Shown: positions 2,179 to 40,350 of the stretch, piece after piece
How the letters are laid out: every line of letters starts with the position of its first letter
Position numbering within the stretch: the stretch's first letter is position 1
DNA from: Streptomyces sp. 150FB
GTDB lineage: Bacteria > Actinomycetota > Actinomycetes > Streptomycetales > Streptomycetaceae
Length of the DNA stretch: 64,000 nt
Assembly (NCBI RefSeq): GCF_000818195.1
Contig: NZ_JTHL01000001.1
Span: 7,545,852-7,609,851, forward strand
Direction: 5' to 3'
Position numbers and translations under genes: made by a program
The notes under the pieces: model-generated
Told to the model about the DNA's origin: nothing
Databases searched by the model: none
Seen by the model: the letters and a program-made list of their open reading frames with translations, nothing else

Positions 2179-2859
2179 GTGACGGACCTCCCCGAAGAGG
2201 GCCAGCCCATCGAGGCCGTATCGACGGTGTACAGCGGCACCACCTTCCGTTCTCGGCTCGAAGCCGACTGGGCCCGCACCCTCGACACCCAAAGCATCCT
2301 CTGGCAGTACGAGCCCGAGCAATTCACCTTGCCGTCAGGGGCGCATTACCTGCCGGACTTCTGGCTGCCCGAGATCGGGACATGGCTTGAGGTCAAGGGG
2401 CCAGCCACCCCCCGCAAGGAAAAGGCCGTCGAGCTGGGCAAGGCGCGCGCCTGCCGTTGCGACGGCCCCTGCGCCTGCGCGTGGCCCGGTGGCGAGATGG
2501 TCCTCCTTGGCTGGGTCGCGGAACGCGCCCACGGCGACATCAACGTGGCTCGTAGCCGGTCGGGCTACGCCAGTTGGGCTGCCGCTCACGGGCCCAGCGC
2601 GTACTTCGCGTTGTGCCCCTGGTGCGGGCTCAGACAGTGGATCACCCTGCGCCGTCCGTGGAAGTGCCGCGCCTGTCGCCGCAGTCTGGAAAGCGAGGAG
2701 CTGTACCAGCCCCACGACCGTGTGCTGCCTTTCGGGAGCGGCTCGGGGTGGTCTCCTGCGGACACGGTGGCCATCCGCAGGGAGATCGCCGAACAGATAG
2801 CTGAGGCAGAGGCCGCTGACTCGGAGGACTCTCGCTCGGAGGCCCCGTACGAAGCGTGA
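2179..2859 (+). CDS. PD-(D/E)XK nuclease-like protein with zinc ribbon
   Basis: Translation reads FRSRLEADWARTLD, then WQYEPEQFTLPSGAHYLPDF, then WLEVKGP, the signature of a phage-type PD-(D/E)XK nuclease (Asp in LPDF, Glu and Lys in EVKG). Two Cys pairs, LCPWCG and KCRACRR, follow as a zinc ribbon near residues 145-175, and the tail is acidic. I chose the GTG at 2179 (226 residues) because GGAG lies six bases upstream and the domain begins 20 residues later; the frame is open further upstream, but that part overlaps the IS1380 remnant and has no domain. Such proteins occur as stand-alone genes on actinobacterial phages and mobile elements. Confidence 0.7.
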   Translation: MTDLPEEGQPIEAVSTVYSGTTFRSRLEADWARTLDTQSILWQYEPEQFTLPSGAHYLPDFWLPEIGTWLEVKGPATPRKEKAVELGKARACRCDGPCACAWPGGEMVLLGWVAERAHGDINVARSRSGYASWAAAHGPSAYFALCPWCGLRQWITLRRPWKCRACRRSLESEELYQPHDRVLPFGSGSGWSPADTVAIRREIAEQIAEAEAADSEDSRSEAPYEA

Positions 2860-3138
2860 GGGCGCGGGCGCGTAATGCTCGCCCACTCGCGGGTGAAGGT
2901 CCACTCTCGCCCGGCATCGACTGGGCGCCGTGTTGCCGCCACGAGGCGGCGACACTTCGACGGCTCCCCAGGGACGGTCGGCTGGGGGCGCTGAACCCGG
3001 CAGGCCTGGAACAGATTCGCGCGCCCGGCGTTTTCAAATCATGGCGGCTCGAACACTACGGGCCGCCTCCGCCCCTCTCGCTGGCCTGCGTCGAACACAT
3101 GGGTAGGGTCGTGGTACCCGAGGTGGAGAGGTAGCCAC
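2860..3138. other. Intergenic region without recognisable gene
   Basis: About 280 bases between the nuclease-like gene and cutA. A 92-codon frame runs through it but has no recognisable domain and unusual composition, so I do not call it. No hairpin followed by a T-run was noticed. The bases before the cutA ATG include GAGGTGGAGAGG, a strong ribosome-binding site. Confidence 0.5.
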
Positions 3139-3465
3139 ATGGACCCCGAGATCGTGATCGCGCAGACGACGAGTGACGACGAGGAGCAGGCGAAGACCCT
3201 CGCCAGAGGCGCTGTTGAGAGCAAACTGGCGGCGGGCGTTCACATCGATGCGCCCATCACCGCCTTCTACTGGTGGCAGGGGAAGGTCGAAGCGGCTCAG
3301 GAGTGGCGGATCTCCTACATGACGTCGGCGGATCGCCTCCCCGCGCTTGAGGCATGGCTGCACGAGAGGCACCCGTACGACGTCCCCCAGTGGGTCACGC
3401 TGCCTGTGACCGGAGGGTCGGAGGCGTACTTGTCCTGGGTCGTCGACGAGACGCGTCCGCAGTAG
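3139..3465 (+). CDS. cutA: CutA1 family divalent-cation tolerance protein
   Basis: A 108-residue protein, the usual length of CutA1. It opens with IVIAQTTSDDEEQAKTLARG, carries KLAAGVHIDAPITAFYWWQG (the conserved CutA core, normally LAACVNI...YWW.G) and ends with VPQWVTLPVTGGSEAYLSWV (normally P.I..LP...G...YL.W). CutA1 forms very stable trimers linked to copper and other divalent-cation tolerance, though its biochemical role is unsettled. A strong GGAGAGG ribosome site lies about six bases before the ATG. It is a stand-alone gene, convergent with the regulator to its right and not obviously tied to the neighbouring pathway. Confidence 0.92.
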   Translation: MDPEIVIAQTTSDDEEQAKTLARGAVESKLAAGVHIDAPITAFYWWQGKVEAAQEWRISYMTSADRLPALEAWLHERHPYDVPQWVTLPVTGGSEAYLSWVVDETRPQ

Positions 3466-37121: not shown

Positions 37122-38069
37122 TCATCGTCCGCGCCGGGGCGCCGGCGAGCTGGCCGGCAGCCGGGCAGAGGTCGCGGGCGCGGGGTGTCCCGTCCGTTTC
37201 TGCGCCGCCCCCGTGGAGCGGCTCTGGGCGGCCATCACTCGGAGGTCGGCTGCTGTGCGCGGTGCCCGCGCGGCACGGTGTACGGCCTGGGTGACCGCGG
37301 TGCGGCGTACGTCCAGCGGAGTCGGAGCGCGCGAGACCTGAGCCTCGGCGATCGACGTGGCCGAAGCGACAGGGGTCGTAGTGACCAGGTGCTGCATACG
37401 CCGGTCGACTTGGTGGCGTTCGCGGACCACCGGGGTCGACTTCGCCATCACAGCGGCGGTTGCGGTGATCAAATGGGACGGTGTGCGGGCAGTGAAGGTC
37501 GCTTCGGCACGAGTGCCCCAGCCCGGCGGGCCGGCCCACAGCTCGACGGTCCTGCGGTCGGAACCGTAGCCGCGCCGATCGATAAGGATGCCCGCTTGGT
37601 CGTCAGGAGCGATGATTTCGACGGTGCCGAGTTCAGCTCCGTCAAGGTTCCAGCCGGCATCGGTCAGCGGCCGGACGGTGTCCCTCCAAGGGGCGGTTGG
37701 CCCTGTCAAGAAGCGGCCGAGGGTGTCGGAAGCGAGGGCTTCGTCGTAGTCCTGGACCAGTGCGGCGGTGAGGCCGGCGACCATCTCGGCCGGGGTGACG
37801 TGGTTGAACGTCGCCGTCCAGCGAGGCGCCGAGAAGGCGTCCTCGGCTGCGCTGATCTTCCACAGTTCGAAGTCGTCGCCAAACCAGCCGATCCGAATCC
37901 GTTGGTCGGGAGAGGTTACGAGGAGCTGGCAGGGACCCTCATCGAGGTACTGATGAGGCCAGTGGGCGACGGGCGCGAAGCCAGCCTCGCCGGTCCCGTT
38001 GGAACCAGCCAGATACATAGGGCTGACCAGTACCTCTTGGTACCGGGTCGGGTCATCAGGGGCGTACAT
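37122..38069 (-). CDS. DUF317 protein with two repeats
   Basis: A 315-residue protein from ATG 38069 with GGAG nine bases upstream. Repeat one is VSPMYLAGSNGTGEAGFAPV, LLVTSPDQRIRIGWFGDDFE and HVTPAEMVAGLTAALVQDYD. Repeat two is LTDAGWNLDGAELGTVEIIA, PDDQAGILIDRRGYGSDRRT and ARTPSHLITATAAVMAKS. This two-unit form is standard for DUF317 of Streptomyces. The last 90 residues are basic and Ala-rich. Function unknown. The IS5-type element is inserted about 100 bases upstream of its start and may affect its transcription. Confidence 0.8.
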   Translation of the reverse strand: MYAPDDPTRYQEVLVSPMYLAGSNGTGEAGFAPVAHWPHQYLDEGPCQLLVTSPDQRIRIGWFGDDFELWKISAAEDAFSAPRWTATFNHVTPAEMVAGLTAALVQDYDEALASDTLGRFLTGPTAPWRDTVRPLTDAGWNLDGAELGTVEIIAPDDQAGILIDRRGYGSDRRTVELWAGPPGWGTRAEATFTARTPSHLITATAAVMAKSTPVVRERHQVDRRMQHLVTTTPVASATSIAEAQVSRAPTPLDVRRTAVTQAVHRAARAPRTAADLRVMAAQSRSTGAAQKRTGHPAPATSARLPASSPAPRRGR

Positions 38070-38211
38070 GGTCGAGTCTCCGGAAGCGAAGGAGGAGAAC
38101 GGATCCGCGTGAGCAGCGGTGGGAGCCGCCGGTGCGCACGCGGATGCCGTGGCGGCGGCAGGTGGCCTCTAGGGACTGTCTCTCAGATCCGTCTGTGGGA
38201 TCGTCGTGCTC

Positions 38212-38577
38212 ATGATCGAGTCGTGGGTTGTCGATGACGGCAGCGCTGTGCAGGTGGTGCTGGAGACCCTCCGGGCGAAAATCGGCGAGGGACAGCTTGA
38301 GACCTGGCTGGCCAGTTCATCCGGCCGCAAGTTGGCCTTCGTGACCAACGCCGAGCGCGCGCTGGTGGTGTTGATGGATGGTGAGGATGATGCTGGCGAG
38401 CACGCCGTCGACCCTGGAGCTGAGGGATCGAGCGGCGGTTTCGTTCTGTCCAATGGGCAGTACGACGAATACCCGGACGTGGACACCGTGCCGCTTGAAG
38501 AAGCGTTCAGGATCGTCGACCACATCGTCAGCAGGGGGACTTGGCCCGCAGACGCGCGCCGGGCGGTCGACCGTTGA
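38212..38577 (+). CDS. Imm1-family immunity protein
   Basis: A 121-residue protein. The C-terminal half, GGFVLSNGQYDEYPDVDTVP followed by LEEAFRIVDHIVSRGTWPAD, is typical of Imm1 immunity proteins, which neutralise secreted deaminase-type polymorphic toxins. The N-terminal half is AVQVVLETLRAKIGEGQLET, RKLAFVTNAERALVVLMDGE. ATG 38212 is chosen over GTG 38206. No toxin gene is next to it. It appears to sit between the ends of the IS5-type element, facing the transposase, and would then travel as a passenger. Confidence 0.75.
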   Translation: MIESWVVDDGSAVQVVLETLRAKIGEGQLETWLASSSGRKLAFVTNAERALVVLMDGEDDAGEHAVDPGAEGSSGGFVLSNGQYDEYPDVDTVPLEEAFRIVDHIVSRGTWPADARRAVDR

Positions 38578-38586
38578 TCGAGCCAG

Positions 38587-39446
38587 CTACTGCCGAATCC
38601 AGATGAGGATGGCGGCAAAGTGGAGTGCGGCCTGATAGGCAATGGCGAGCTTGTCCGTTCGCATCGCCAGGCCGCGCCACTGCTTCAGCCGGTTGATGCA
38701 TCGCTCGACAGCATTGCGCTGCTTGTACGTCTCAGCATCGAAACCAGGCGGGCGTCCTCCTGCGCTGCCTCGCCGTAGGCGGTGTCTTACCTGGTCGGCG
38801 GGCTGCGGAATGACGGCACGGATGCCGCGACGCCGGAGGTGCCTGCGGATCGCGCGGGAAGAGTACGCGCGATCCGCGAGGACAGTCTCTGGTCGAGTCC
38901 TCGGTCTCCCGACTGTGCTCCGGGGCACCCGGATCCTCGCCATGACAGCCTCGAAGGTCTGTGCGTCTCCGGCCTGGCCCGCGGTGACATGGAAGCCCAA
39001 CGGTCGCGCCTGGCCGTCACTGGCAAGGTGAACTTTCGTGCTCAAGCCACCACGTGAGCGTCCGAGTGCATGATCGTCGGGTTCGGCCCGATCGGGATCC
39101 CCTTTTTCCTGGCTCCGGCGGCGTGCTGGTGAGCCCGACAGACTGTTGAGTCCACGGACACCGTCCAGCCCAACTCGTCGCCAGCGTCCGCAGCGGTCAG
39201 GACGGCCGTGAGGATCCGTTCCCAGGTGCCGTCAACGGCCCACCTGATCAGGCGCTTGTGTGCAGTCTGGAACGAGCCGAGTTCGGCAGGCAGGTCCCGC
39301 CAGGGCGAGCAGGTTCGGTACATCCACGCGATGGCCTCAAGGGTTCGACGGTGGTCGGCCCACCGTCGCCCACGGACCGGGTCGGCCGGCATCAACGGCT
39401 CGATCCGGGCCCACATCAAATCAGTGATCACCAACCGGACAGACAC
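38587..39446 (-). CDS. IS5-family transposase, two frames joined by -1 frameshift
   Basis: Frame A (39042-39446, 134 codons) has WARIEPLMPADPVRGRRWAD, MYRTCSPWRDLPAELGSFQT and the first catalytic Asp in WTVSVDSTVCRAHQHAAGA. Frame B (38587-39045 and upstream) continues DDHALGRSRGGLSTKVHLAS, VLADRAYSSRAIRRHLRRR (second Asp) and KQRNAVERCINRLKQWRGLA (Glu). A -1 slip at the A-run of GAAAAAG (39103-39108 on the plus strand) joins both frames into one about 280-residue IS427-type DDE transposase, as in many IS5 relatives. All three catalytic residues are present, so the element may be active. Confidence 0.85.
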
Positions 39447-39531
39447 ATCCGATCAACTGACCAACCCACCAAAGAGACACGCTCTAGTTCTCACTCCCAT
39501 CACCGGCCCCGGCCCGGTGCCGACCGAGCGG

Positions 39532-40350
39532 TCACGGCCGCCAGCACCCGCGGTTGCGGCTGTGGCGCGTGGCTGAACATGACGTTGGACGTGGCGGTGC
39601 TACGCCGTAGGGCCGCCGCGGTCCGGGCGCTGTCGGCTCCCGCCCCAGCGGAATGCCGACGTGGGTGCGCGTGGCTGCCGCTGTCGGACGCGGTGCCGCT
39701 GTTCCACTTCGCAGCGCGAAGGGCTGGCTCCAGTGCTCGACACTCGCGTAGACGGCCCCCAACGCCTGGCCGGCATCGGTGAGCACGTAAGGGTCTCCGT
39801 GCCGGGAGCCCGTCCGCGTGACCAGGCCATCGGCCTGAAGCCGGACAAGTCGCTGCCGTGCGAGGCCGCAGTCCAGACCGGCCGCCTCGGCGATGTGAAC
39901 GAACCGCATCTGGCCGTCAGCCGGGTCGAGGGCCTGAATCACGGCAGTTGAGTGCCGAAGATGCAAGCGGCGCAGCGCGTCCTCGACACGCTCGGCTTCG
40001 GCCATCGGTTCCTGTGTCAGGTGGGTGCGGGACCAGTCCGACACCGTGCGGAGGACGGGGGCCAGAGACGTGCCGAGCGTGCTGAGCCGGTACGGCGCGC
40101 CCCGCCGGTCGTCTTCGCGGATCACCAGTCCGTCAGCGTGCATCGTGGCCAGCCGTTTGCCGACGAACTGCTCACTGACGAAGGGGAGCTGCGCAGCAAC
40201 GTCGCGGACGCGCACGGGGCCGTTCACCTGGGCCAGGGTCATCGCGGTCCAGGTGGTCCACTTGGGCCCGATCCGGGCGAGAGCCTCCTCGACGCGCTGG
40301 GCGTCGATGGAAGCGATGGAGAGGGTGGGAGGCAGGCCGGGGGTAGCCAT
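39532..40350 (-). CDS. Double HxlR-like winged-helix regulator
   Basis: A 272-residue protein with two winged-helix units. Unit one: RVEEALARIGPKWTTWTAMT, VRVRDVAAQLPFVSEQFVGK, RLATMHADGLVIREDDRRGA, PYRLSTLGTSLAPVL. Unit two: AVIQALDPADGQMRFVHIAE, AGLDCGLARQRLVRLQADGL, GDPYVLTDAGQALGAV. Both resemble the HxlR family; two in tandem is less common. The last 50 residues are disordered. It is the end of the long leftward transfer operon and the IS lies just after it. It may regulate the operon or the DUF317 genes. Confidence 0.72.
   Translation of the reverse strand: MATPGLPPTLSIASIDAQRVEEALARIGPKWTTWTAMTLAQVNGPVRVRDVAAQLPFVSEQFVGKRLATMHADGLVIREDDRRGAPYRLSTLGTSLAPVLRTVSDWSRTHLTQEPMAEAERVEDALRRLHLRHSTAVIQALDPADGQMRFVHIAEAAGLDCGLARQRLVRLQADGLVTRTGSRHGDPYVLTDAGQALGAVYASVEHWSQPFALRSGTAAPRPTAAATRTHVGIPLGREPTAPGPRRPYGVAPPRPTSCSATRHSRNRGCWRP

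What the first reader, a model, noticed from the sequence alone, without database searches (positions are those of the whole stretch)
38173..39483. IS5-type element that appears to carry an Imm1 immunity gene
Both proposed ends contain TGTCTCT at the same offset and are flanked by CTAG. The Imm1 stop is nine bases from the transposase stop, so no IS end can fit between them. An IS that spreads an immunity gene would give hosts protection against polymorphic toxins, an uncommon passenger.
Basis: partly seen in the sequence, partly recalled or inferred. Interest (0 to 1): 0.7.

Follow-up and report, generated by a model that had tools for sequence, protein, structure and literature searches.

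The report
Jumping gene with swappable passenger
A small Streptomyces jumping gene really does carry a possible toxin-immunity gene inside its own ends, and it is one of a family whose members each carry one of at least 17 different passenger genes that have been exchanged over time.

Summary
The Imm1-like gene (38206-38577, +) and a two-frame IS5-type transposase (38587-39446, -) form one 1313-bp element (38172-39484) between matching ends at CTAG sites. Nine loci in eight Streptomyces genomes have this pair (three truncated); six keep both ends, in unrelated flanks. Plasmids lacking the insert read straight across the window's site, at about 73% identity.

It is one case of something larger. 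I found 53 'loaded' elements with 17 passenger types, including Imm1-like, barstar, SUKH/SMI1, DUF6221, GNAT, LysE, an L7/L12-like protein and unknowns. All 49 that could be placed on a transposase tree fall in one clade; nearly all bare ~914-bp relatives fall outside it. Passenger types are interspersed, so passengers have been exchanged. Three of 13 elements tested have empty sites at 91-100% identity, two of them base-exact. One element was found 99.8% identical in unrelated flanks. Passenger genes show dN/dS medians of 0.14-0.30.

Weak points: Imm1 identity rests on sub-threshold Pfam hits that the window protein lacks; immunity function is inferred; how passengers are acquired and swapped is unproven, and two breakpoint tests were negative. 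It is a new variant of the known 'transporter IS' kind; ten paper searches found no description.

The parts
38172..39484 (.). whole mobile element, 1313 bp, if the target duplication is TA
   Evidence: repeated with both ends at 6 sites with unrelated flanks (window included)
38170..38171 (.). left copy of the TA target duplication within CTAG
39485..39486 (.). right copy of the TA target duplication within CTAG
38169..38187 (+). left end (CTAGGGACTGTCTCTCAGA), 19-mer scored; 3 mismatches to the consensus
39469..39487 (-). right end (CTAGAGCGTGTCTCTTTGG read inward), 1 mismatch to the consensus
38188..38205 (+). short leader between left end and passenger gene; similarity to free-standing relatives L122 and L123 extends into it
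38206..38577 (+). passenger gene, 123 aa, distant Imm1-like protein
39042..39446 (-). transposase frame A (PF13340, DUF4096)
38587..39045 (-). transposase frame B (PF01609, DDE_Tnp_1), overlapping frame A; probable frameshift fusion of 860 nt
   Evidence: single 860-nt 'IS5 family transposase' CDS in relatives

Best explanation
The element belongs to a Streptomyces lineage of IS5-family (IS427-group-like) insertion sequences in which the left end lies beyond a passenger gene, so transposase and passenger move together into CTAG (more broadly YTAR-like) sites. SHOWN by sequence: the two-gene unit has matched ends, recurs at unrelated sites, and empty sites exist; passengers differ between elements, look selected for function, and have been exchanged between transposase lineages. 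INFERRED: the passengers pay their way by helping the host, several of them (Imm1-like, barstar, SUKH) as immunity or antitoxin proteins against other bacteria's toxins. INFERRED: the loaded form arose from a bare ~914-bp IS when a gene came to lie between its transposase and a new left end resembling the right end, and passengers were later swapped by recombination within the shared element body.
For: Same ends: 81 of 91 loci against 0 of 60 control flanks at <=4 mismatches. 53 loaded elements of 17 passenger types; 46 keep both ends (16 types) and 41 of those 46 have TA on both sides. L009/L092 (barstar) 99.8% identical over 1272 bp with no similarity in 600-bp flanks; the six full Imm1-type copies likewise lack flank similarity, except one 17-bp hit. 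Empty sites: window joined flanks match in one piece in 3 plasmid records, two of them from one strain; of 13 other elements queried, L010, L011 and L096 have one-piece matches (98.8%, 100%, 91%; 60 of 129 records were listed), L010 exact across the junction. All 49 accepted loaded rows on the transposase tree lie in one clade, SH-aLRT 99. Same-passenger transposases are rejected as one clade for GNAT (p 0.0096), c8 (0.0004), Imm1-like (8.6e-20). dN/dS medians 0.14-0.30 in ten families, seven of them resting on a single pair. Loaded left ends match the right-end consensus at 216 of 255 positions, the bare left end at 173. A decayed bare-type left end remains beside the transposase in 2 of the 53 (L027, L112). 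L033 keeps an Imm1-type left end and first codons in front of another passenger.
Against: No transposition assay. Breakpoint tests for recombination were negative. SUKH transposases are not rejected as one clade (p 0.43). The clade tests used groups named after the tree was seen. The window's Imm1-like protein has no Imm1 hit itself, and its predicted fold was too poor to search (mean pLDDT 49). Many passengers (DUF6221, GNAT, LysE, L12-like, unknowns) have no evident immunity role, and none of 10 tested matched PADLOC. Types c4 and c6 gave no clean passenger ORF shared by all copies. The window genome has one full copy only. No empty site was found in the 61 genomes, and the empty site of the window shows no CTAG at the junction. 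5 of 46 two-ended elements lack TA on one or both sides.
Confidence: 0.85

Rival explanations
1. The IS simply landed next to a resident Imm1-like gene; the left 'end' is a chance match.
For: Imm1-like relatives with no match to this IS in 2.5-kb flanks exist on three plasmids, and bare IS forms exist.
Against: Six full copies with both ends in unrelated flanks; the window's empty site lacks both genes; left end in 0 of 60 controls.
Confidence: 0.02
2. Passengers are transposition helpers or regulators of the transposase, not host-benefit genes.
For: They lie adjacent to the transposase, are small, and show purifying selection; accessory genes are known in IS (PMC3129680 passages).
Against: At least seven unrelated protein families occupy the same slot; a bare IS recurs identically at two places of one genome (L039/L045), so no passenger is needed to move in that clade.
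Confidence: 0.08
3. Passengers are random hitchhikers captured with adjacent DNA and carried neutrally.
For: Diverse and partly unremarkable functions; some copies are broken (L072) and 2 of 11 DUF6221 copies gave no ORF meeting the script's criteria.
Against: dN/dS medians 0.14-0.30 in ten families; barstar and SUKH-1 together are only 139 matches in 21 genomes yet are 2 of 17 passenger types, a post hoc comparison that ignores gene size.
Confidence: 0.1

Closest known systems
IS427 group of the IS5 family
   Same: DUF4096 + DDE_Tnp_1 transposase in two overlapping frames; 2-bp duplication; bare form about 0.9 kb. IS427 members of 832-865 bp, nearly all with 2-bp repeats and some with two overlapping frames: PMC3281130, passages seen.
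   Different: The loaded form is 1.2-2.4 kb with a passenger gene between transposase and left end.
Transporter IS (IS with passenger genes unrelated to transposition)
   Same: One IS transposase, one pair of ends, a passenger inside (term in PMC3129680, passages seen).
   Different: Here one lineage carries at least 17 exchanged passenger types, several of immunity or antitoxin families.
Tn7-like transposon cargo
   Same: Variable cargo enriched in defence and toxin-antitoxin genes (PMC8649781, abstract and outline seen).
   Different: A different kind of transposon (recalled: larger, multi-gene machinery); here a small IS with room for about one gene.
Imm1 (PF14430) immunity proteins
   Same: 9 of 11 aligned members match weakly, best E 4e-4; L017 aligns over profile positions 46-124 of 125.
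   Different: L017 scores 18.0 bits against a cut-off of 22.4, and the window member has no hit; its window neighbours are a DUF317 and an HxlR gene, not an evident toxin.

Membership tests
IS5 family, IS427 group | DDE transposase of IS5 type (DUF4096 + DDE_Tnp_1) | tested here: met
   relatives annotated 'IS5 family transposase'
IS5 family, IS427 group | two overlapping frames joined by frameshifting (seen in some members) | tested here: inconclusive
   two overlapping frames seen; fusion not assayed
IS5 family, IS427 group | terminal inverted repeats and a 2-bp target duplication | tested here: met
   41 of 46 two-ended loaded elements have TA on both sides; L012, L036 and L102 (non-CTAG targets) fit 2 bp; not resolvable at CTAG targets
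Transporter IS | passenger gene inside the IS ends, moved with it | tested here: met
Transporter IS | active transposition by its own transposase | not testable with these tools
   needs an assay
Imm1 (PF14430) | profile score above the curated cut-off | tested here: not met
   window no hit; L017 18.0 of 22.4 bits; hence 'Imm1-like', not a member
Imm1 (PF14430) | fold of Imm1 | tested here: inconclusive
   model mean pLDDT 49.4, not searched
Imm1 (PF14430) | neutralises a cognate toxin | not testable with these tools
   needs an assay

The most novel reading that the evidence does not exclude
A single IS lineage works as a one-gene cassette platform for Streptomyces: any small gene that comes to lie between the transposase and a right-end-like sequence becomes mobile, and the passenger slot is repeatedly re-filled and swapped, mainly spreading single immunity and antitoxin genes that protect hosts from neighbours' toxins or plasmid addiction.
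Probability: 0.35. Interest if true: 0.85.

Novelty: new variant of a known kind. Interest (0 to 1): 0.72.

Why it matters
It would show a 1.2-2.4 kb element doing what large transposons or integrons are usually credited with: moving single adaptive genes, with an exchangeable slot. It offers a simple explanation for how lone immunity and antitoxin genes spread among Streptomyces chromosomes and plasmids. In the plasmid records examined the passengers are annotated as ordinary neighbours, so such elements may be overlooked elsewhere. The set gives ready sequences for testing cargo capture by a DDE transposase and for testing whether mobile orphan immunity genes protect in soil competition.

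Tried and rejected
Rejected: chance left end and a neighbouring resident Imm1-like gene. Dropped from the loaded count of 59: L065 (tandem IS copies) and L068 (IS fragments in both orientations round a lectin gene); L059 and L073 (weak left end, no accepted right end; both in the bare clade; the L073 gene is a clear SMI1/KNR4); and two repeated places (L013, L108), leaving 53. Not classed: L029, L048, L050, L079 and L111 had no left end. L024, L071 and L087 have only 6-mismatch sequences at or near the bare position and count as unknown in the tree. Loci whose transposase match did not reach the passenger side were not scored.

Negative tests: splitting the transposase into thirds or halves gave 24-26 passenger changes each, so no breakpoint was located. 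The excess identity next to the passenger is not specific to same-passenger pairs (3.3 observed, 6.2 in shuffles). No PDB chain by profile for the Imm1-like protein. PADLOC: no hit for 10 passengers. NCBIfam: weak acetyltransferase hits for one of 10 passengers, none for nine. The AlphaFold model was poor, so no fold search was run. A search of 394 genomes of the class found close transposases in 4, all in the window's genus (1 of 137 genera); weaker matches in other genera among the plasmids were not examined.

Literature: ten searches listed no paper that I recognised as describing these elements. Passages were seen in PMC3129680, PMC7371123, PMC3281130 and PMC9208149, and the abstract and outline of PMC8649781; no paper was read whole. 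ISfinder could not be consulted.

Full report
WHAT IS THERE. The window holds a 1313-bp element at 38172-39484. Two CTAG sites (38169-38172 and 39484-39487) border inverted ends in which TGTCTCT sits at the same offset. Inside lie a 123-aa gene (38206-38577, +) and, converging on it with nine bases between stops, a transposase in two overlapping frames (38587-39045 and 39042-39446, -). Pfam names the frames DDE_Tnp_1 and DUF4096. The genome holds one full copy and three partial matches.

IS IT ONE UNIT? A search with the transposase alone (38599-39487) gave 69 places in 58 of 295 Streptomyces genomes; a second, overlapping draw gave matches in 53 of 392 at a stricter cut. A plasmid search gave 239 records, of which I fetched 24. 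Beside the transposase these had different small genes: barstar, DUF6221, GNAT, SMI1/KNR4, LysE, hypotheticals. In 18 of the 24 a left end like the window's lies beyond that gene; the other 6 are bare. Over all loci scored, 81 of 91 (window, bare and loaded forms together) have an end within 4 mismatches on that side, against 0 of 60 right-hand flanks. The consensus was drawn from such ends, and the control flanks are shorter (1000-1500 against up to 2600 bp).

TWO FORMS. Bare elements (24 loci; 18 of the 21 with a right end are 904-915 bp) have a left end near CTAGGTTCTGTCTCTTTGG, 32 bp from the end of the transposase match. Loaded elements (53 after exclusions, 1207-2388 bp in the 46 with both ends) have a left end near CTAGRGCSTGTCTCYTTGA, 325-1506 bp away. 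Loaded elements fall into 17 passenger types, 12 of them seen in two or more elements. The largest are DUF6221 (11 loci), the window's Imm1-like type (9) and barstar (8). On the transposase tree all 49 loaded rows that could be used lie in one clade (SH-aLRT 99, quick tree, midpoint root). That clade also holds one bare-type row (L109) and four unclassified rows; the other 23 bare rows lie outside it.

MOBILITY. Within passenger types, elements align end to end while flanks mostly do not; the main exceptions are two repeated places and L031/L094, which share their left flank. L009 and L092 (barstar) are 99.8% identical over 1272 bp with no similarity in 600-bp flanks. Six two-ended Imm1-type copies (L015 = window, L017, L025, L026, L035, L084) are 78-92% identical over their whole length; the only flank similarity is one 17-bp hit between L026 and L084. 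Genome G093 holds two Imm1-type copies, L025 and the truncated L082. The window's joined flanks match uninterrupted sequence in three plasmid records (two of one strain) at about 73% identity, without either gene; no CTAG is left at the diverged junction. Of 13 other elements whose joined flanks were searched together, three have uninterrupted sites in other plasmids: L010 (98.8%), L011 (100%) and L096 (91%); 60 of 129 records were listed. L010's site matches exactly across the junction, with a single CTAG, in another plasmid of the same species. No empty site turned up in the 61 genomes searched round the window's own. In 41 of 46 two-ended loaded elements TA stands on both sides, and 38 of the 46 fit a CTAG target. 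Targets GTAC (L012) and TTAG (L036, L102) fit a 2-bp duplication; L023, L031, L033, L091 and L097 do not show TA on both sides.

PASSENGERS. Pfam: barstar 1.5e-8 (L009), DUF6221 4e-13 (L020), GNAT 1.1e-9 (L032), SMI1_KNR4 2.6e-5 for L040, just under its cut-off (L097 is annotated SMI1/KNR4), LysE 3e-36 (L102), ribosomal L12 C-terminal 2.1e-11 (L028), M35 peptidase 5.1e-34 on an ORF of L007. Of the types scanned, L010, L011, L022 and L033 and L095/L096 had no hit. The Imm1 label: the window protein has no Imm1 hit, L017 scores 18.0 bits against a cut-off of 22.4, and 9 of 11 aligned members hit Imm1, best E 4e-4. I read it as a distant Imm1-like protein. Ten passenger families have median dN/dS of 0.14-0.30 by a simple Nei-Gojobori count; seven of these rest on one pair, and single DUF6221 pairs reach 0.675 (the frameshifted L072 is included in the Imm1-like set). 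Types c4 and c6 were not tested for lack of clean ORFs. Background: barstar 33 and SUKH-1 106 matches in 21 genomes, so both among 17 types is unlikely to be chance, though the comparison is post hoc and ignores gene size.

ORIGIN AND EXCHANGE. Passenger labels on the tree (23 groups, bare and unknown included) need 35 changes where 22 is the minimum and shuffled labels need 56.9 on average, so passengers are partly inherited and partly exchanged. Holding transposases with the same passenger together is rejected for GNAT (p 0.0096), c8 (0.0004) and Imm1-like (8.6e-20), not for SUKH (0.43); the groups were chosen after seeing the tree. L033 starts with an Imm1-type left end and first codons and continues into another passenger. 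Two of the 53 keep a decayed bare-type left end beside the transposase (L027, 3 mismatches; L112, 6); control positions never scored below 7. The other 51 show none within 6 mismatches. New left ends match the right-end consensus better than the bare left end (216 against 173 of 255 positions). Free-standing Imm1-like genes with no match to this IS (L122, L123, L124) are possible sources; L006, the one hit in genome contigs, is a decayed copy still joined to the first few dozen bases of the transposase's 3' end. How the swap happens is not shown: two breakpoint tests were negative.

COMPARISON. The transposase anatomy fits the IS427 group of the IS5 family (2-bp repeats and two-frame ORFs, PMC3281130 passages). 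IS with passengers are a recognised kind, 'transporter IS' (PMC3129680 passages). What differs here is one IS lineage with many exchanged passengers, several from immunity families. Ten literature searches listed no report that I recognised as describing it. At E <= 1e-100, matches among 394 genomes of the class were in the window's genus only; weaker plasmid matches in other genera were not examined.

VERDICT. My confidence that the two genes move as one element is about 0.95, that passengers benefit the host about 0.7, and that the window's passenger is a toxin-immunity protein about 0.5 (inference).

Noticed in passing
L068 (G253), left end at 1318, tnp 2536-3311 (oriented locus): IS fragments in both orientations flank a ricin-type lectin gene, a composite-like arrangement that could be a snapshot of passenger capture.
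   Followed up: partly
L109 (G362), left end 2429 (oriented locus): A bare-type left end on a transposase that groups inside the loaded clade, a possible passenger loss or recombinant.
   Followed up: no
L085 and L092 flanks: L085 sits in the palindrome TTGCAGTACTAGTACTGCAA, and L092 has the same left half-site, a possible hot spot.
   Followed up: no
window 38845-38877: A perfect 12-nt inverted repeat with a 9-nt loop inside transposase frame B; a similar sequence is visible in L009.
   Followed up: no
L011 3084-4772 and L010 3126-4896: A polymorphic-toxin HINT gene and a DUF4157 gene lie right next to two loaded elements.
   Followed up: no
window 37122-38069 and 39532-40350: The element sits between a DUF317/SPDY gene and an HxlR-type regulator; the same kind of gene pair without the element is on Streptomyces angustmyceticus plasmids.
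   Followed up: partly
L033 left end: A leader segment of about 20 bp appears twice in front of a replaced passenger.
   Followed up: no
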